49,563 nucleotides of DNA from Oscillospiraceae bacterium. Lineage in GTDB: Bacteria > Bacillota > Clostridia > Oscillospirales > CAG-382. Shown here piece after piece: positions 42,042 to 48,639 of this stretch (positions are counted from its first letter, which is position 1; the number at the start of each line of letters is the position of its first letter). The stretch covers positions 1 to 49,563 of the forward strand of contig JAFLUP010000007.1 of NCBI GenBank assembly GCA_022508745.1, read 5' to 3'. The notes below the pieces were generated by a model. The model was not told where the DNA came from. It did no database searches and worked only from the letters and a program-made list of their open reading frames with translations. Both the position numbers and the translations under genes were made by a program.

Positions 42042-44369
42042 TTACGCGATCTTGAAGGTGCCGAGCACATGCCGTTTGACCAGCATGTAGTCCAGCGCGG
42101 TGATCTTGCCGTCGTTGTACACGTCGGCAACAGCCATTTGTTCCTCCGTCAGCTTGAACGTGTCGAGGCAGAACCGCTTGAGCAGCAGGTAGTCCATCGC
42201 GTCGATCTTCCCGTTGTTGTTGACGTCGCCCAACAGGCCGGAGAATTCCTTCTCCCCGCAGACTGTGCAGACTCCGTCCTCGAAGCGGTGCCCGGTGGCG
42301 GGCAGGACGGTCACTTCGCCTTTGGTCTCCCCGCAGTTCTTGCAGTGGATGCCGGTGCTGCCGTCCTCGGTGCAGGTGGGGGGAACGGTGGTGGGGGCCT
42401 CCTCCCAATCGTGCCCGGTAGCGGGGAAGTCGCGGTGGGAGAGGGTCTCATCGCAGTCGTCGCAGAGGATGTCCTCGTATCCGTCCTCGGTGCAGGTCGC
42501 CTTGGCGCTCTTGGTACGGGTATGGATATGGTTGTCCGGATTTTTGTTCCCGTAAAGGAAGGTATCGTCCACCTTTTCGCCGCAGATGGTGCAGCTCTTG
42601 TAGTAGACCGCCGGGGAAACGCAGTTAGCCTCCGACTTCAGATACTGCGCATCGACCTGCTCGATCAAGGTATGGTCACAGAAGATTTCTACGGTCTGTC
42701 GGTTGTAGTTGTCCGGGATGTACCGGTAGAAGACATGGATCTCGTAGACCCCCGCCCGATCGAATTGGAGATACCCGTCCTCGACCCATGTGGAAGCGAG
42801 GCGGATGGTCACGCCCTCCGCCGTCTGCCCTGTCGCTTTGTCGGTGACGGTGACGATCCAATCGTTGTGCGTGGTGTTGTAGTCGGTTGCCACGAAAAAG
42901 TAGAGCCTCGTCCCCACAGCAAACGTTTCTCCCCACAGCTCACGCAAGGGATGATACGTGTCCAAATCTCCGCTCGTGCTCCAGTATACAGACATGTAGT
43001 GGGGCGTTTCAAAGGTTTCCTTGTGCCCGCAGACCGTACATTCGACGGTGCAGTTCCAGTTCGGTGCGCTGGGGTAGGCGATGATCTTTGCCCGGTCGAT
43101 TGCCGTGCAGTTGTTTTGGGAAACGTCGTTTGTGTCGATCTCATAGAACGTGATCACGCTGTTTTCCCGGGTGTACCAGACCACTTTGCCCCCGAAAACG
43201 ATAGGCTTGCAGTCGGAAAGGAAAGAATCCTGCATGCAATAGGTGTCGCTTACCGGCTCCCCGCTGCCGTTCAGCCCCGTATAATAGACGTTCCCGTACT
43301 GCGACCAGAGCAGGAGGAAGGAATCCCCCGAAATCTTCACCAGCTGCGGCGTGGAGGCGGTGAATTCTCCTTCCGCGTAGTCCGTGATCTGCCGGATCGT
43401 CACCTCTTCGCTCGCTTTGTCCATGGCGGAGACGTAGATGTTTCTTGTTTTGTAGTCGCGAAAATGCTCGTCCTGCGGGACGGAGTTGTATGCGACCAGA
43501 TAAGCGCTATCGGAGATCTCGAGCCCGCCCACGGATGCGCCGGTGTAGTTTTCTCCGATTTCTCCCACAAAGGACTGAAGGTTCATTCGCCGGTAACTCC
43601 CCCAATCGATTTTTCCGTCTGTCATCGAGAAGTCTTCCAGCACGATGCAGCGGGGAAAGGCGTCCCCGTGGTCCACCGCCGCCACCCGGTCGCCGTCGAT
43701 TTTGATGAACTGGTTGAAGGAATGGGACACATACCCGCCGGCGAAGGAATCGGTGATCTGCATGGTTTCGGTGTCCACCTGCATGGAGATGTTCGCCTGA
43801 TGGTTCAGCCCGTCGGAAGCCTTGTACATTTCGTGGCAGGTGCGGATGAGCAGCATGTTTCCGCTGTGCGCCATGCGCGCGCTACCCGCCCGGAAGGGGA
43901 TGGTGGTGTTGCAGTCGTAAAGCCCTACGGAATCCAGCCGGTTCCAATCCAGATCGTATTTGGTGATCCGGTAGCACTCCACGGAGGCGGATTCGTCCGG
44001 GTTTTCCTGCCCGGAAAGGATGTAATAGCTGTTCTCCATGGCGTAGAATCCGCCGAAGAGCGGCAGCTCCCTCGGTACCTGCACATCGCGCAGGGAGCGG
44101 TAGTCGGCGTCAAAGTATTCCACTTGATACGATCCGTCTGCTCTGTTCGCCTGCACGCGCATCAGTTCCCCCTCCGCGCTTTTGGTTAGGTAGGAGTAAA
44201 CGGGGGTGGACCAGTCGTAATAATCCTGCTGTTCGATGTTGTCGCCTTGCGCCAAATGGACGCAGGTTTCTTCCGCTGTGGCGGCCTCCACCACTCCGAG
44301 GGGGAGCAGGCAGGTTAGGCTGCTCAGGAAGAGCGCCGCGGCAAGAAACATGGTGATGACTTTTTTCAT
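42042..44369 (-). CDS. Secreted type I dockerin protein
   Basis: 775 residues. Signal peptide 1-29 (MKKVITMFLAAALFLSSLTC, cleavage near VEAATA). Residues 40-430 look like a beta-propeller or other sheet repeats (FYAMENSYYILSGQE, GNMLLIRTCHEMYKA, SAYLVAYNSVPQDEHF). Then come Cys-rich CxxCG modules (ECTVCGHKE, SCTICGEKV, CDDCDETL, HCKNCGETKG, VCTVCGEKE) interspersed with ATGHDWEE/ATGHRFED repeats. Residues 712-775 are a type I dockerin with two calcium loops, GDVNNNGKIDAMDYLLLKRF and ADVYNDGKITALDYMLVKRH. Dockerins bind cohesins on scaffoldins; none is seen here. No catalytic domain was recognised. Driven by an ECF-type promoter at 44430-44455. AGGAG-type ribosome binding site 7 bases upstream. 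Confidence 0.9.
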   Translation of the reverse strand: MKKVITMFLAAALFLSSLTCLLPLGVVEAATAEETCVHLAQGDNIEQQDYYDWSTPVYSYLTKSAEGELMRVQANRADGSYQVEYFDADYRSLRDVQVPRELPLFGGFYAMENSYYILSGQENPDESASVECYRITKYDLDWNRLDSVGLYDCNTTIPFRAGSARMAHSGNMLLIRTCHEMYKASDGLNHQANISMQVDTETMQITDSFAGGYVSHSFNQFIKIDGDRVAAVDHGDAFPRCIVLEDFSMTDGKIDWGSYRRMNLQSFVGEIGENYTGASVGGLEISDSAYLVAYNSVPQDEHFRDYKTRNIYVSAMDKASEEVTIRQITDYAEGEFTASTPQLVKISGDSFLLLWSQYGNVYYTGLNGSGEPVSDTYCMQDSFLSDCKPIVFGGKVVWYTRENSVITFYEIDTNDVSQNNCTAIDRAKIIAYPSAPNWNCTVECTVCGHKETFETPHYMSVYWSTSGDLDTYHPLRELWGETFAVGTRLYFFVATDYNTTHNDWIVTVTDKATGQTAEGVTIRLASTWVEDGYLQFDRAGVYEIHVFYRYIPDNYNRQTVEIFCDHTLIEQVDAQYLKSEANCVSPAVYYKSCTICGEKVDDTFLYGNKNPDNHIHTRTKSAKATCTEDGYEDILCDDCDETLSHRDFPATGHDWEEAPTTVPPTCTEDGSTGIHCKNCGETKGEVTVLPATGHRFEDGVCTVCGEKEFSGLLGDVNNNGKIDAMDYLLLKRFCLDTFKLTEEQMAVADVYNDGKITALDYMLVKRHVLGTFKIA

Positions 44370-44429: not shown

Positions 44430-44455
44430 TAGACAACCGAAAAGTGGAAAAGGTT
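44430..44455 (-). promoter_or_regulatory. ECF-type promoter of the dockerin gene
   Basis: On the minus strand AAAACC-TTTT (AACC at 44455-44452) is 17 bases from GTCTATAG (GTCTA at 44434-44430). The layout AAC(C)-N16/17-GTC/CGTC fits ECF sigma promoters. Nearly identical to 48586-48611 over about 45 bases, including the start of the leader. Confidence 0.7.
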
Positions 44456-44479
44456 TTAGGTTTTGAAAAATTATTTTTT

Positions 44480-44562: not shown

Positions 44563-47067
44563 TCAGCTTTTCGGGATATCGCCGTCGGTGCAGTGGACGG
44601 TATAGGCAGGGGTGCCGACATCCCACAGATCGCTTTTTTCAATGCTTTCCCATTCTGCTTTGGTACCTTTGTAAGTGATGCTTGTTAAACTTGAACAGCC
44701 GAGAAATGCAAGACCTCCAATGCTAGTCACACTGTTGGGAATGGTGACACTGGTTAAACTTGTACAAAGAGAAAATGTGTCTTCTGCAATGCTGGTCATG
44801 CTATCAGGAATGGTGATGTGTGTTAAACTTGTACACCCATGAAATGCACGGTTATCGACACTGGTTACGCTGTCTGGAATGGTGATGCTGGTTAAACCCG
44901 TACAACTGTAAAATGCCAAACCTTCAATGGTAGTTACGCTGTCGGAAATGGTAACACTGGATAAACTTGTACAAAGATAAAATGTACCTTCTGCAATGCT
45001 GGTCATGCTATCAGGAATAGTGATGTGTGTTAAACTTGTACACCCACGAAATGCAAAGTTATCGATACTGGTCACGCTGTCTGGAATGGTAACGCTTGTT
45101 AAACTTGAGCAGTCGCTAAACGCGGAATCTCCTATGCTGATTACGCTACCCGGAATGGTGACACTCGTTAAACCCGTACAGCGGAAAAATGCAAAGCTTT
45201 CAATGCTTTTTACGCTATTAGGAATGGTAATTCTTGTTAAACTTGAGCAGTTGCCAAACGCGGAATTTCCTATGCTGATTACGCTATCCGGAATGGTGAC
45301 ATTGGCTAAACCTGTACAGCTTTCAAACATAAATCTTTCAATGGTTGTCACACTGTTGGGAATGGTGATGCTAGTTAAATTTGCGCAGCCTTGAAATGCA
45401 TAGCCTTCAATGGTAGTTACGCTGCCGGGAATGGTGACACTGGTTAAACTTGTACAGCTGGAAAATGCACTTTCTTTAATGGTAGTCACGCTGTCTGGAA
45501 TGGTGATGCTGGTTAAACTTGTACAGCCGTGAAATGTATTCTTTCCAATGGTAGTTACGCTTCCGGGAATGGTGGTACTGGTTAAACTTGAACAGCCGAA
45601 GAATGCATTTTGCCCAATGCTGGTCACGCTGTCGGGAATAGAGATGCTGGCTAAACTTCTACAAAGCCAAAACGCGCTTTGCCCAATGCGGGTGACGCTG
45701 TCGGGAATGGTGATGCTGGTTAAACTTGTGCAGTCGTAAAACGCTTGGATGCCAATTCCCGTTACCGGCAGACCGTTGTATTTTGCGGGGATTACAATTT
45801 CTGTATCGGTGCAGCTTCCAATCCCGGTTACGCTGTAGGATTTGCCATCGTTGTTGAGCTTGAATTCCAAACCCTCGCTTGCATTGATTTCCGGCTCTAC
45901 ATTTGGTTCTTCACTCGTCACAGATTCGTCACTTACCACCGGTTCGTCGCTCACCACAGGTTCATCGCTCACGGTTGGTTCATCACTTACGACAGGTTCA
46001 TCGCTTATGACCGGCTCGTCGCTCACGACGGGTTCATCACTTACAGTAGATTCCTCGTTCATAGCCGGTACATCACTCGTGGACGCTTCCAACACCGAAG
46101 AAGATTCTTCTTCCGACGAAACCGTCTCGGAAACGATGGGCGGTTCGCTCTCCTCGCCACCGCGATTCGCCAGATACACGCCGGTACCGATGCCGCCGCC
46201 GACCAACGCGATCGCAACCACCCCTGCCGTAATTTTCGCGCCAAGGGTGGCAAGCAATCCGCCGCCGACGCCTGTCGCTGTAGCTGTTGTACCGGCTGCC
46301 GCAGTGGTTGTCGTTGCCGTGGTCGCGACCGCCGCGCCTGTGGAGGTCGCGCCTGCCGCCGCGGCAGCTGTCGTGCCGGAGGTGGCGGACATAATACTCC
46401 CAAAGACCGCGGTAGGGGCGTTTCCTGCCGTGGCTTGGAGCATTTGGTTCTTGAACAGCAGCATAAGGAACGGAATCGGAGACAGGGAGTACAGCTTGGT
46501 GCCCTTCTTCTCCAGATCTTCCACGCATAGTCGGATCTTCTTCTTTCCGTAATTCAGACGGCTTTTCACCGTATTTTCGCTGATCTCCAATTCTTCGGCG
46601 ATCTCCGAGATCGTCATGTTTTCATAGTAAAACATACCGATGACCATACGCTGCTCATCCGGCAGGGAATCCAGAATTTCCCTTATCAGCCGCGCGGTCT
46701 CGTTGCGGTCAAGCACTTCTTCCGGCAGATTTTCTTCCCGCTCGTCTTCAAAATCCGGTTCGTTTCCGTCCTCATCCGCCATTTGGGAAAAGGTCATCTC
46801 GTGCTTCTTTTTGAACCAGTTCTTTGCGGTGTTCGTGGCGATGCGTTTCATCCACGCAAGGAATTGTTCCGGATTTTCCAATGTGGATAGGTTGGCAAAT
46901 CCCCTCACGAATGCATCCTGCGTGATATCCAGCGCGGCGTCTTCATCCCGTACCATGGATTTCACGGTACGGTAAACCGCGTCATAGCTGTTTTGGTAGA
47001 GGTCGTAGAACGCGTCCTGATCGTTCTGTTTTGCCCGTTCTACCAGCTCACTCCATGTTTTCTGCAT
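44563..47067 (-). CDS. Membrane-tethered ECF sigma factor fused to a BspA-like LRR ectodomain
   Basis: 834 residues. 1-90: sigma-70 region 2 (FYDLYQNSYDAVYRTVKSMV, DITQDAFVRGFANLS, FLAWMKRIATNTAKNWFKKK). 125-190: region 4 with the helix-turn-helix ISEIAEELEISENTVKSRL. 209-275: Ala/Thr/Gly-rich linker. 279-301: one membrane helix (GVVAIALVGGGIGTGVYLAN). 303-395: Ser/Glu/Pro spacer with VSDEP repeats, encoded by 18-bp tandem repeats near 45917-46054. 411-805: 15 leucine-rich repeats of 23 residues (LRR_5/BspA type, pattern SITIPDSVTSIGxxAFxxCT). The tail has AYTVHCTDGD. Expected topology is sigma inside, LRR outside. Sigma activity would be released by cleavage or ligand-induced change; this is inference. 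A 56-codon gene overlaps its start. It plausibly controls the ECF-type promoters on both sides. The LRR part is more A+T-rich than its surroundings. Confidence 0.93.
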   Translation of the reverse strand: MQKTWSELVERAKQNDQDAFYDLYQNSYDAVYRTVKSMVRDEDAALDITQDAFVRGFANLSTLENPEQFLAWMKRIATNTAKNWFKKKHEMTFSQMADEDGNEPDFEDEREENLPEEVLDRNETARLIREILDSLPDEQRMVIGMFYYENMTISEIAEELEISENTVKSRLNYGKKKIRLCVEDLEKKGTKLYSLSPIPFLMLLFKNQMLQATAGNAPTAVFGSIMSATSGTTAAAAAGATSTGAAVATTATTTTAAAGTTATATGVGGGLLATLGAKITAGVVAIALVGGGIGTGVYLANRGGEESEPPIVSETVSSEEESSSVLEASTSDVPAMNEESTVSDEPVVSDEPVISDEPVVSDEPTVSDEPVVSDEPVVSDESVTSEEPNVEPEINASEGLEFKLNNDGKSYSVTGIGSCTDTEIVIPAKYNGLPVTGIGIQAFYDCTSLTSITIPDSVTRIGQSAFWLCRSLASISIPDSVTSIGQNAFFGCSSLTSTTIPGSVTTIGKNTFHGCTSLTSITIPDSVTTIKESAFSSCTSLTSVTIPGSVTTIEGYAFQGCANLTSITIPNSVTTIERFMFESCTGLANVTIPDSVISIGNSAFGNCSSLTRITIPNSVKSIESFAFFRCTGLTSVTIPGSVISIGDSAFSDCSSLTSVTIPDSVTSIDNFAFRGCTSLTHITIPDSMTSIAEGTFYLCTSLSSVTISDSVTTIEGLAFYSCTGLTSITIPDSVTSVDNRAFHGCTSLTHITIPDSMTSIAEDTFSLCTSLTSVTIPNSVTSIGGLAFLGCSSLTSITYKGTKAEWESIEKSDLWDVGTPAYTVHCTDGDIPKS
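44670..45760 (-). repeat. Tandem 69-bp coding repeats (LRR units)
   Basis: Fifteen 69-bp units encode the 23-residue LRRs. A block of three units is duplicated: the IDNFAFRGCTSLT-to-SMTSIAEGTF set and the VDNRAFHGCTSLT-to-SMTSIAEDTF set are nearly the same at about 44770-45110, a recent expansion. Confidence 0.85.
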
Positions 47068-47218
47068 TTTGATCCGCTCCTTTATCGTCCGATACTTCTT
47101 TCGACACTTGCACGCGTATCCAGATGGACGCGAACATTTTTTTCGCAGCTTCTGCCGTCAGTTTATAATACTGCATCCAATTTTCCAGTAGATTGCGGTA
47201 ATTCAGACGTTTGTCCAT
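47048..47218 (-). CDS. Small 56-residue protein overlapping the sigma-LRR gene
   Basis: ATG 47218 opens a 56-codon frame (MDKRLNYRNLLENWMQYYKL at the N-terminus, ending DQNAENME) that stops at 47048, 20 bases inside the sigma gene. GGAGGT lies 8 bases before its start. Sigma-gene translation is therefore likely coupled to it. The protein is charged, with an aromatic-rich first helix and no membrane segment. It resembles no family I know; it could be an anti-sigma-like or chaperone peptide, or simply a leader. Confidence 0.6.
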   Translation of the reverse strand: MDKRLNYRNLLENWMQYYKLTAEAAKKMFASIWIRVQVSKEVSDDKGADQNAENME

Positions 47219-47272
47219 GTGCATCAACCTCCGTTCTTCCTGTGGAGGGCACGCGCTGTCCGCAGCCTCTAC

Positions 47273-47300
47273 AGTATACCATAATTTGACAAAAAAACAA
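47273..47300 (-). promoter_or_regulatory. Putative sigma-A promoter of the small gene and sigma-LRR gene
   Basis: On the minus strand TTGTTT (47300-47295) and TATACT (47278-47273) are 16 bases apart. It is unlike the ECF-type promoters nearby, so the sigma gene seems not to be autoregulated by the same motif. Confidence 0.55.
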
Positions 47301-47413: not shown

Positions 47414-48544
47414 TTAATCGACTTCCACTCCTTCATCGCCGGGTTTATCCAGCGTCAGGGTCAGGCCGTTGCCCGTGCGGAAGATCAGACCGCGATCCCT
47501 GTCCTTATTCGTGAACAAAACGGAAAAGGTGGAGCCATATACCGTTCCTTTTGCGGGAGGGAAGTTATACAAATCGAAGACACTTTCCGGCCCGATTGTT
47601 TCTTGTTTTTGAATGAAATAGTTGTTTGCCGTCCATTCTCTGACCGTTTCAACGGAAATCTGCTCTTTTGTCGTGCGGTTGCCGGTATTGTCGGTCGTAA
47701 CATGCAGCGTATAGTCGCCTGTGGTCATCGCGCTGTCATAACTCCATTTCAACGTCAATTCAGGGAGCTTCAGGTCCCCATATCTTCCATCGTACTCATA
47801 CGCGTCGTACTCATTAAGATACAAATTGCCGAACACATCAAAGTCTAACGTGGTGCGTATTATGTAATCGTTGTCGTCATCATAATAATACAGACCTATG
47901 GAGCTTGAAAAAAGACCGTGGTCGCCTTCTACTTTGATAACTCCCATTCCCGATTGGATATTATATTCTCTTACGGCAAACATATAATCTCCCGGTTTTT
48001 TGATATATTGCTCCAGACCAGTGGGTTCGCCGATATATGTGTCCGATGTGTCCGGGGAGACATAGATGTTCGCGGTATTCGGGTCAAATTCATAGTGGTA
48101 AAAGCTGCCGGCACGATGCGACGCCGTGTACTTTCTTACATGTGCAAGTAGCTCTTCATCGGACATTTTGGCGATTTCTCCCCATGTGAGCGCATACTCT
48201 TTCGTATCGCGGTCGTATTCCCCGAGAGAGACGATAAAATAGAGTTTGCCATTCTCGAACAAGTACATACTGGACGGGGATGCATCCTTGTCCAGCGGGT
48301 ACTCCCCGTAAAACCCTACCTTCGGTCCGTTGTCCAGATATTGCTTGAGGGTGACGGTGCCTGTCAGCGGAGCGGGTGTTCCGCTTGCGGAGCTGTTGCT
48401 GTTCGTAGAATCGGCGCTGTCCTTTGTGCTGCTGTTCTCAGTCCGGCCGTCGGAACCGTTGGGCATAGATCCGCTGCAGCCTGCGAGCAGACCGACGAAT
48501 AGAGTAAGTGCTAAACAAAGTGCGATGAATCTGATTTTTTTCAT
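47414..48544 (-). CDS. Lipoprotein of unknown function
   Basis: 376 residues. Lipoprotein signal peptide with the lipobox LLAGC (Cys23) after MKKIRFIALCLALTLFVG. A Ser/Asn/Thr spacer follows (about 24-60), then a soluble domain with sheet-like stretches: LTGTVTLKQYLDNGPKVGFYG, FENGKLYFIVSLGEYDRDTK, NIYVSPDTSDTYIGEPTG, YTLHVTTDNTGN and GLTLTLDKPGD. No known domain recognised. AGGAGAC ribosome binding site 6 bases upstream. Transcribed from an ECF-type promoter that copies that of the dockerin gene, so probably part of the same regulon as the nearby sigma factor. No clear terminator; the 132 bases after it (to 47281) hold nothing recognised. Confidence 0.85.
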   Translation of the reverse strand: MKKIRFIALCLALTLFVGLLAGCSGSMPNGSDGRTENSSTKDSADSTNSNSSASGTPAPLTGTVTLKQYLDNGPKVGFYGEYPLDKDASPSSMYLFENGKLYFIVSLGEYDRDTKEYALTWGEIAKMSDEELLAHVRKYTASHRAGSFYHYEFDPNTANIYVSPDTSDTYIGEPTGLEQYIKKPGDYMFAVREYNIQSGMGVIKVEGDHGLFSSSIGLYYYDDDNDYIIRTTLDFDVFGNLYLNEYDAYEYDGRYGDLKLPELTLKWSYDSAMTTGDYTLHVTTDNTGNRTTKEQISVETVREWTANNYFIQKQETIGPESVFDLYNFPPAKGTVYGSTFSVLFTNKDRDRGLIFRTGNGLTLTLDKPGDEGVEVD

Positions 48545-48585: not shown

Positions 48586-48611
48586 TAGACAACAGAAATT
48601 GGAAAAAGGTT
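48586..48611 (-). promoter_or_regulatory. ECF-type promoter of the lipoprotein gene
   Basis: On the minus strand AAAACC (AACC at 48611-48608), 17 bases, GTCTATAG (GTCTA at 48590-48586). Same sequence and spacing as at 44430-44455. Confidence 0.7.
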
Positions 48612-48639
48612 TTAGGTTTAGGAAAAATTTTCATAAAAA

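What the first reader, a model, noticed from the sequence alone, without database searches (positions are those of the whole stretch)
44563..47067. One-protein surface signalling: ECF sigma factor fused to a membrane helix and an outside LRR domain
Seen: complete sigma regions 2 and 4, one membrane helix at 279-301, an acidic SDEP spacer and 15 BspA-type LRRs in a single 834-residue chain. Known: ECF sigma factors are usually controlled by separate membrane anti-sigma factors, and BspA-type LRRs bind host or surface ligands. Inferred: the sensor, the tether and the transcription factor are combined, so an outside ligand or proteolysis would release the sigma part. No separate anti-sigma gene is nearby, apart from the small overlapping gene.
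Basis: partly seen in the sequence, partly recalled or inferred. Interest (0 to 1): 0.78.

Follow-up and report, generated by a model that had tools for sequence, protein, structure and literature searches.

The report
Membrane-tethered sigma factor with swappable sensor
This gene encodes one protein that joins a gene-switching sigma factor, through a membrane anchor, to a sensor-like domain predicted to lie outside the cell; it belongs to a recurrent family in which the outer domain varies, and it probably switches on neighbouring genes for exported proteins.

Summary
In detail: 44563-47067(-) is one open frame of 834 aa with sigma regions 2 and 4, one membrane helix (about 279-301), an acidic SDEP spacer and 16 BspA-type LRR units. 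It is not a chance or assembly fusion: three paralogues in the genome have sigma parts 79-84% identical to it, and the architecture occurs in 18 of 245 order and 15 of 391 class genomes. In 30 aligned members the sigma part, a 'KLY-LSPIPFL'-like motif, usually an Ala/Gly/Ser/Thr-rich tract, and a helix recur, while outer domains differ (LRR, Ig-like, WG repeats, lipase, unknown). An ECF-type promoter motif sits 41-60 nt before exported or membrane protein genes beside all four sigma genes, and again in another family's genome. Best reading: a one-piece receptor-sigma, probably freed by intramembrane proteolysis; sensing and release are inferred. [quoted passage not shown] membership in group ECF262 could not be tested. 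New variant of a known kind.

The parts
44563..47067 (-). fused gene: ECF-type sigma factor + membrane helix + acidic spacer + BspA-type LRR domain, 834 aa
46804..47001 (-). sigma region 2 (aa 23-88)
   Evidence: Pfam Sigma70_r2; model 10-residue blocks at pLDDT 85-97
46534..46692 (-). sigma region 4 (aa 126-178)
   Evidence: Pfam Sigma70_r4_2; model blocks at pLDDT 74-97
46447..46497 (-). conserved juxtamembrane motif KLYSLSPIPFLMLLFKN (aa 191-207)
   Evidence: L192 at least 90% conserved in 30 members; predicted helix 197-213 at low confidence
46258..46431 (-). Ala/Gly/Ser/Thr-rich tract (about aa 213-270)
   Evidence: 86% A/G/S/T and no charged residue in the 58-residue tract; 97% in the protein's best 40-residue window; pLDDT under 50 in the model
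46165..46233 (-). single membrane helix (aa 279-301)
   Evidence: helix 277-302 in the model at low confidence
45898..46158 (-). acidic Ser/Glu/SDEP-repeat spacer (about aa 304-390)
44623..45810 (-). LRR domain with 16 units of 23 residues (about aa 420-815)
   Evidence: Pfam LRR_5 1.8e-139; unit count; solved LRR relatives 4fs7, 4gt6
47048..47224 (-). small conserved gene (58 aa) overlapping the sigma start by 20 nt; candidate anti-sigma or partner
47273..47300 (-). housekeeping-like promoter TTGTTT-N16-TATACT ahead of the small gene; similar sequences precede the three paralogues (read by eye; the consensus scan did not list it)
44430..44457 (-). ECF-type promoter AAAACC-N17-GTCTA, 60 nt before the dockerin gene
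48586..48613 (-). ECF-type promoter AAAACC-N17-GTCTA, 41 nt before the lipoprotein gene
42042..44369 (-). probable target: exported protein with type I dockerin, 775 aa
   Evidence: Pfam Dockerin_1 3e-17; signal peptide read by eye
47414..48544 (-). probable target: lipoprotein (lipobox read by eye), 376 aa, no Pfam family; 53% identical to the lipoprotein beside the C2 paralogue

Best explanation
A one-piece receptor and transcription initiation factor. The N-terminal ECF-type sigma factor is held at the membrane from inside by a C-terminal helix; acidic spacer and LRR domain lie outside. SHOWN by sequence: the architecture, its family, one helix with an N-in/C-out charge pattern, intact sigma regions, and an ECF-type promoter motif ahead of adjacent exported or membrane protein genes. 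INFERRED: the operon is made at a basal level from a housekeeping-type promoter. The outer domain senses a ligand or surface state. A change there leads to cleavage outside and then in the Gly/Ala-rich membrane helix (RseP-type M50), which frees the sigma part to bring RNA polymerase to AAAACC-N17-GTCTA promoters. The products are exported proteins, some with the same LRR type as the sensor. The four paralogues, having near-identical sigma parts but partly different outer domains, would be several inputs to one promoter class.
For: Three paralogues in the genome with sigma parts 79-84% identical to the window's. Same architecture in 18 of 245 order genomes (27 places) and 15 of 391 class genomes (24 places). 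One side of a branch in a sigma-only tree, support 95/95. 30 of 30 aligned members have a hydrophobic helix and a more negative outer side. Near-identical sigma parts with unrelated outer domains: L106 versus L106b; C40 versus the window at 81% sigma identity. Seven perfect sites of the strict promoter pattern in the genome, all 41-60 nt before an exported or membrane protein gene, six of them at the four sigma loci. In G148 (another family) two AAAACC-N17-GTCTA sites were listed, one beside the sigma gene and one before an LRR lipoprotein. M50 proteases present. Precedents: IutY, freed by Prc and RseP (PMC8999054, section 3.5); RsgI sensors cut by RseP in the helix (PMC12203970, abstract and introduction).
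Against: No ligand, cleavage or topology data. M50 proteases were found in all 14 control genomes. The bare AAAACC/GTCTA core is hardly more frequent genome-wide than its reversed control (5 versus 3; 39 versus 44 with one mismatch), and the stricter pattern was made from the seven sites it finds. In G148 the total at up to 3 mismatches equals its control (11 versus 11); the support there is positional. The window's sigma operon has no such site directly upstream. No clear site was found near the 34-40% identical genus relatives. The model does not explain the small upstream gene.
Confidence: 0.55

Rival explanations
1. The small upstream-encoded protein (58 aa in the window) is the real anti-sigma or co-sigma factor. 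The membrane part only places the sigma factor near the envelope, and the outer domain tunes binding of the small partner without cutting the chain.
For: Homologues precede the window gene, its three paralogues and the closest outside relative L099; in a 33-codon core amino-acid changes are strongly suppressed (pN 0.11 versus pS 0.74 between window and C50); its frame overlaps or abuts the sigma start.
Against: A model made of these five proteins found no further homologue in the loci held: the next hit has E 1.1. No Pfam family. The other 25 aligned members lack a detectable one.
Confidence: 0.2
2. The sigma factor works while still tethered: an outer-domain conformational change exposes or hides the sigma part, without cleavage.
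For: The tract of about 60 residues between motif and helix, pLDDT under 50 in the model, would give reach; the conserved KLY-LSPIPFL segment could be a clamp.
Against: The model shows no confident docking of the segment on the sigma domains (pLDDT about 50, pTM 0.34; shallow alignment of 30). The one experimentally characterised case in kind, IutY, is activated by cleavage (PMC8999054).
Confidence: 0.17
3. The outer domain is not a sensor but an adhesin or wall anchor, and the fused sigma part is a quality-control reporter that signals failed export or lack of a partner surface protein.
For: Targets are exported proteins, some with LRR like the sensor; in two loci the outer domain is homologous to a neighbouring exported protein (L037, L110).
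Against: Within one locus, outer domain and neighbour are similar in only these 2 loci, apart from tandem sigma genes; outer domains differ between near-identical sigma parts, which fits input diversity better.
Confidence: 0.06
4. Frameshift or assembly artefact joining a sigma gene to an LRR gene.
For: The genome is in 120 contigs.
Against: Three in-frame paralogues on separate contigs and 27 collected members in other genomes.
Confidence: 0.01

Closest known systems
[quoted passage not shown]
   Same: sigma domain, then a transmembrane segment, a low-complexity spacer and a binding domain (PMC5826349, abstract and section on gene structure read)
   Different: ECF52 has a zinc-finger domain, is described as exclusive to Actinobacteria, and has a carbohydrate-binding module; no zinc-finger family was over its cut-off in the 30 proteins scanned here (L102 had a weak C1_1 match below cut-off)
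IutY of Pseudomonas putida (ECF243)
   Same: sigma factor fused to a membrane regulator, freed by proteolysis (review PMC8999054)
   Different: IutY is an iron-starvation cell-surface signalling protein with its anti-sigma factor fused; no anti-sigma family was found here, and the outer domain differs
SigI/RsgI sensors of Clostridium thermocellum
   Same: several paralogues in one genome with different outer sensor domains and one helix; control of dockerin-type exported proteins (here one of the window's two probable targets) (PMC12203970, abstract and introduction read)
   Different: RsgI is a separate anti-sigma protein and SigI is not an ECF sigma factor; here the sigma factor itself carries the outer domain
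ECF262 (type: Ruminococcus albus) and ECF288 (type: Blautia producta), 'with regulatory extensions, others'
   Same: Firmicute hosts (host phylum recalled) and extensions of unstudied mechanism (Table 2 of PMC8999054); ECF262 may be this very family
   Different: their sequences and the classification paper (Casas-Pastor 2021) are not held, so untested; ECF288 is said to be Cys-rich in its extension, while the window's protein has one Cys before the helix and 18 after it
BspA-type LRR surface proteins
   Same: outer domain is this repeat type (LRR_5; nearest solved chains 4fs7, 4gt6)
   Different: those are exported proteins without a sigma factor

Membership tests
ECF sigma factors (sigma-70 family group IV) | regions 2 and 4 only, no region 3 | tested here: met
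   (TIGR02937 over cut-off); nearest solved SigW 5wuq
[quoted passage not shown]
   extension present; no anti-sigma family in the neighbouring proteins scanned, but a conserved 58-aa gene of unknown role overlaps the start
ECF52 | zinc-finger domain in the extension | tested here: not met
   no zinc-finger family over cut-off in P0001 or the 29 others scanned
ECF52 | carbohydrate-binding module outside | tested here: not met
   LRR_5 outside, no carbohydrate-binding family
ECF243 / IutY | fused FecR-like anti-sigma and TonB-dependent receptor neighbour (feature list recalled) | tested here: not met
   no such Pfam match in P0001 or the three window neighbours scanned
ECF262 / ECF288 | match to the group's HMM | not testable with these tools
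   classification paper not held and no group models among the libraries
RsgI anti-sigma family | N-terminal intracellular anti-SigI domain and autocleaving periplasmic domain | tested here: not met
   the N-terminus is a sigma factor; no RsgI-type family in the Pfam result
membrane factors released by intramembrane proteolysis | cleavage in the helix by an M50 protease | not testable with these tools
   only the presence of M50 genes was seen

The most novel reading that the evidence does not exclude
A receptor family in which a fixed module (ECF sigma + KLY-LSPIPFL segment + small-residue tract + Lys-capped helix) is combined with freely swapped outer domains, so that one genome runs several receptors, each a sensor and a transcription initiation factor in one chain, into one shared promoter class. 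The Ala/Gly/Ser/Thr tract would act as a processing stop: after a cut in the helix, a cytoplasmic AAA+ protease trims up to the tract, grips it poorly and lets go of the folded sigma part. A 58-aa coupled protein would keep the sigma part off until then.
Probability: 0.2. Interest if true: 0.78.

Novelty: new variant of a known kind. Interest (0 to 1): 0.58.

Why it matters
If right, these bacteria have a compact signalling route in which one gene carries receptor, tether and sigma factor, and new inputs arise by exchanging the outer domain. It gives predicted promoters and predicted target genes (dockerin, LRR and lipoprotein genes), so the idea can be tested directly in a heterologous reporter. 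It also suggests what controls BspA-type LRR surface proteins and dockerin proteins in little-studied anaerobes.

Tried and rejected
Genome-wide significance of the bare AAAACC-N17-GTCTA core: not shown by count (5 versus 3 in the reversed control; 39 versus 44 at one mismatch). The case rests on position and on the stricter pattern (17 versus 5 at up to 3 mismatches), which was made from the seven sites it finds perfectly.

Outer domain homologous to a neighbouring exported protein as a general rule: seen within one locus only for L037 and L110, plus the tandem sigma genes of L106.

Small upstream gene as a family-wide feature: a homologue was found only for the window, its three paralogues and L099, all five of which made the model; other loci have short upstream frames that do not match it.

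Ectodomain change count on the tree: 17 changes for 18 labels that I assigned, which is the least possible, so it adds nothing.

Docking of the juxtamembrane segment on the sigma part: no confident contact. A processing-stop role for the tract is weakened by PMC6677533 (passages read): several alanines together improve ClpXP grip, although Gly, Ser and Thr grip poorly. PMC8973945 and PMC8103513 were seen in passages only.

Named relatives: the one genome-contig scan gave two ECF loci without this architecture; in plasmids 131 records matched, none over 80% of the query (25 rows seen).

Not in print: the searches listed no paper whose title or abstract start describes a sigma-TM-LRR protein; I saw listings only (15 of 27, 15 of 19, 8 of 9), and most subscription papers are not held.

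Full report
CHECK OF THE OBSERVATION. The frame 44563-47067(-) encodes 834 aa with ATG start and no stops. Pfam places sigma region 2 at 23-88, region 4 at 126-178 and LRR_5 with E 1.8e-139; NCBIfam's general ECF model is over its cut-off. One strongly hydrophobic region follows the sigma part, then an acidic spacer with SDEP-type repeats and 16 LRR units at an exact 23-residue pitch.

IT IS A FAMILY, NOT AN ACCIDENT. Searching the window's own genome (2.16 Mb, 120 contigs) with the sigma part gave 17 places: the window gene, three paralogues 79-84% identical over (nearly) the whole part with frames of 718-978 aa, and 13 more distant sigma genes. In 63 genomes of the family, 4 have matches at E 1e-25, all in the same genus and including the own genome, 10 places in all. 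A profile of sigma + linker + helix (A1) gave 42 places in 32 of 245 order genomes. Of these, 27 places in 18 genomes (16 genera, 11 families) have the long architecture: 26 match to profile position 275 or beyond, and G148 to 260 with the helix found in its protein. Their frames are 359-1196 aa, and one (G177) has an in-frame TGA. The other 15 places are plain ECF sigma factors of 187-226 aa. With the 30-row profile A2, 24 places in 15 of 391 class genomes run through the helix, and 11 further genomes have plain ECFs only. In 398 phylum genomes only the own genome and one of the same class do; three more matched the sigma part only, one of them in a 551-aa frame that I did not look at. At most 9 or 5 candidates per genome were scored, so these are lower bounds.

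ANATOMY. I collected 31 members: 4 of the own genome, 6 of the genus and 21 of the order. I aligned 30 (A2), dropping L117. Recurrent beyond the sigma regions are a segment of the form G-x-(K/R)-L-(Y/H)-x-x-x-P-x-x-(L/F)-L and, in most rows, a helix start like A-K-(I/V)-x-A-G-V. All 30 have a hydrophobic helix at about 230-350 (L111 has a second near its C-terminus). Mean net charge is +1.9 in the 15 residues before and -5.7 in the 40 after the uncharged stretch, and the second is lower than the first in 30 of 30: the pattern of N-in, C-out. The tract between motif and helix is at least half Ala/Gly/Ser/Thr in 26 of 30 (in L040, L103, L105 and L106 the script placed the motif too early, which lengthens their tract). 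A 40-residue window at 75% or more occurs in 17 of 29 family frames and 0 of 154 neighbouring frames, some of which are not genes. An AlphaFold2 model of aa 1-303 gives a confident two-domain ECF sigma factor, a low-confidence helix at 197-213, pLDDT under 50 at 206-288 and a helix at 277-302; mean pLDDT 67, pTM 0.34. The nearest solved sigma factor by sequence is SigW (5wuq).

THE OUTER DOMAIN VARIES. Of 30 proteins scanned with Pfam (including L117, without L114), 11 have an outer family over its cut-off: LRR_5 in five (window, L041, L042, L034, L038), Big_2 in three (L112, L113, L116), WG repeat in L099, Cu_amine_oxidN1 in L110, Lipase_3 in L111. The paralogue on C40 has a sigma part 81% identical to the window's but an outer domain without similarity to any other collected one; the tandem genes L106 and L106b have nearly identical sigma parts and unrelated outer domains. 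In a tree of sigma parts (30 fused, 8 of the 15 plain order places, 8 of the 13 other own-genome sigma genes), the fused ones form one side of a branch, 95/95, in 96% of 200 bootstrap trees. The fused rows were found with profiles that include the helix, so sampling favours this.

PROMOTERS AND TARGETS. AAAACC-N17-GTCTA occurs twice in the window, 0.02 expected, 60 nt before the dockerin gene and 41 nt before the lipoprotein gene. A stricter pattern built from the sites has seven perfect matches in the genome (17 versus 5 in the reversed control at up to 3 mismatches): two in the window, two on C40 before LRR proteins, one on C50 before a 165-aa protein with membrane-like stretches, one on C2 before a lipoprotein 53% identical to the window's, and one on C76 before a dockerin + LRR protein. 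All seven lie 41-60 nt before the start codon, and six of seven are at the four sigma loci; 'exported' was read by eye from N-termini. Weaker versions lie upstream of the sigma operons on C40, C50 and C2, hinting at autoregulation; none does directly in the window, where a housekeeping-like TTGTTT-N16-TATACT precedes the small gene, with similar sequences at the three paralogues (by eye). In G148, a genome of another family with one family gene found (L099, the closest outside relative), two AAAACC-N17-GTCTA sites were listed: one 49 nt before a membrane-like protein beside the sigma gene, similar to the C50 one (28% identity, pairwise E 5e-11), and one about 50 nt before an LRR lipoprotein on another contig. 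G148 was not used to build the pattern. At up to 3 mismatches the total in G148 equals its control (11 versus 11), and no clear sites lie near the genus relatives with 34-40% identity.

THE SMALL GENE. In all four paralogues and L099 a protein of 51-67 aa (M-x-K-R-L-N-Y-R-x-L-L-x-N-W-M-Q...) is encoded just ahead of the sigma gene, overlapping its start by 20 nt in the window. Between the four paralogues, in a 33-codon core, pN is 0.11-0.23 and pS 0.56-0.83. It has no Pfam match. It is the best candidate for a partner or anti-sigma factor; its role is unknown, and its structure job failed.

MECHANISM. Shown by sequence: architecture, family, charge pattern, promoter positions, target classes. 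Inferred: outside sensing, cleavage, release. The genome has M50 proteases, but so have all 14 control genomes. Release by proteolysis is the demonstrated mechanism for IutY and the proposed one for ECF52 (PMC8999054: section 3.5 part 1, tables and passages seen). RsgI sensors with different outer domains, cut by RseP in the helix, control cellulosome genes (PMC12203970, abstract and introduction read). The parallel with RsgI is of function, not of descent.

COMPARISON AND NOVELTY. [quoted passage not shown] This family lacks the ECF52 zinc finger, and no IutY-like feature was seen in the window. Table 2 of that review lists ECF262 (Ruminococcus albus) among groups with extensions of unstudied mechanism; this may be the same group, and I could not test it. 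In the listings I did not find the modular outer domain including BspA LRRs, the shared promoter class or the small coupled gene described. Hence 'new variant of a known kind'.

Noticed in passing
L005 2899-4668(+), L006, L007, L008, L010, L011, L013, L014 (own genome): A second set of sigma factors with long C-terminal extensions of about 350 aa that look soluble, with a winged-helix-like stretch read by eye; Pfam sees little but sigma domains in the three scanned (L006, L010, L013).
   Followed up: partly
L005 1598-2899(-): A sigma factor fused to a zf-HC2 zinc finger (433 aa), head to head with a member of the soluble-extension set.
   Followed up: no
L004 1450-4632(+): Sigma factor of 1060 aa with weak TPR matches below cut-off and a very long extension; a promoter-like site of middling score lies upstream.
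   Followed up: no
L039 439-4824(-) (C76): Exported proteins with LRR and type I dockerin, the longer one under the same promoter motif, although no family sigma gene is in that stretch.
   Followed up: partly
L037 4547-6612(-) and L110 2284-4118(-): Outer domain of the sigma protein is homologous to the exported protein encoded next to it.
   Followed up: partly
L106 2641-7022(-): Tandem sigma genes with nearly identical sigma parts and unrelated outer domains.
   Followed up: yes
L117 976-2190(+): A family member with an in-frame TGA in the sigma part.
   Followed up: no
L111 64-3591(+): A member with a class 3 lipase family outside and a second, C-terminal hydrophobic helix.
   Followed up: no
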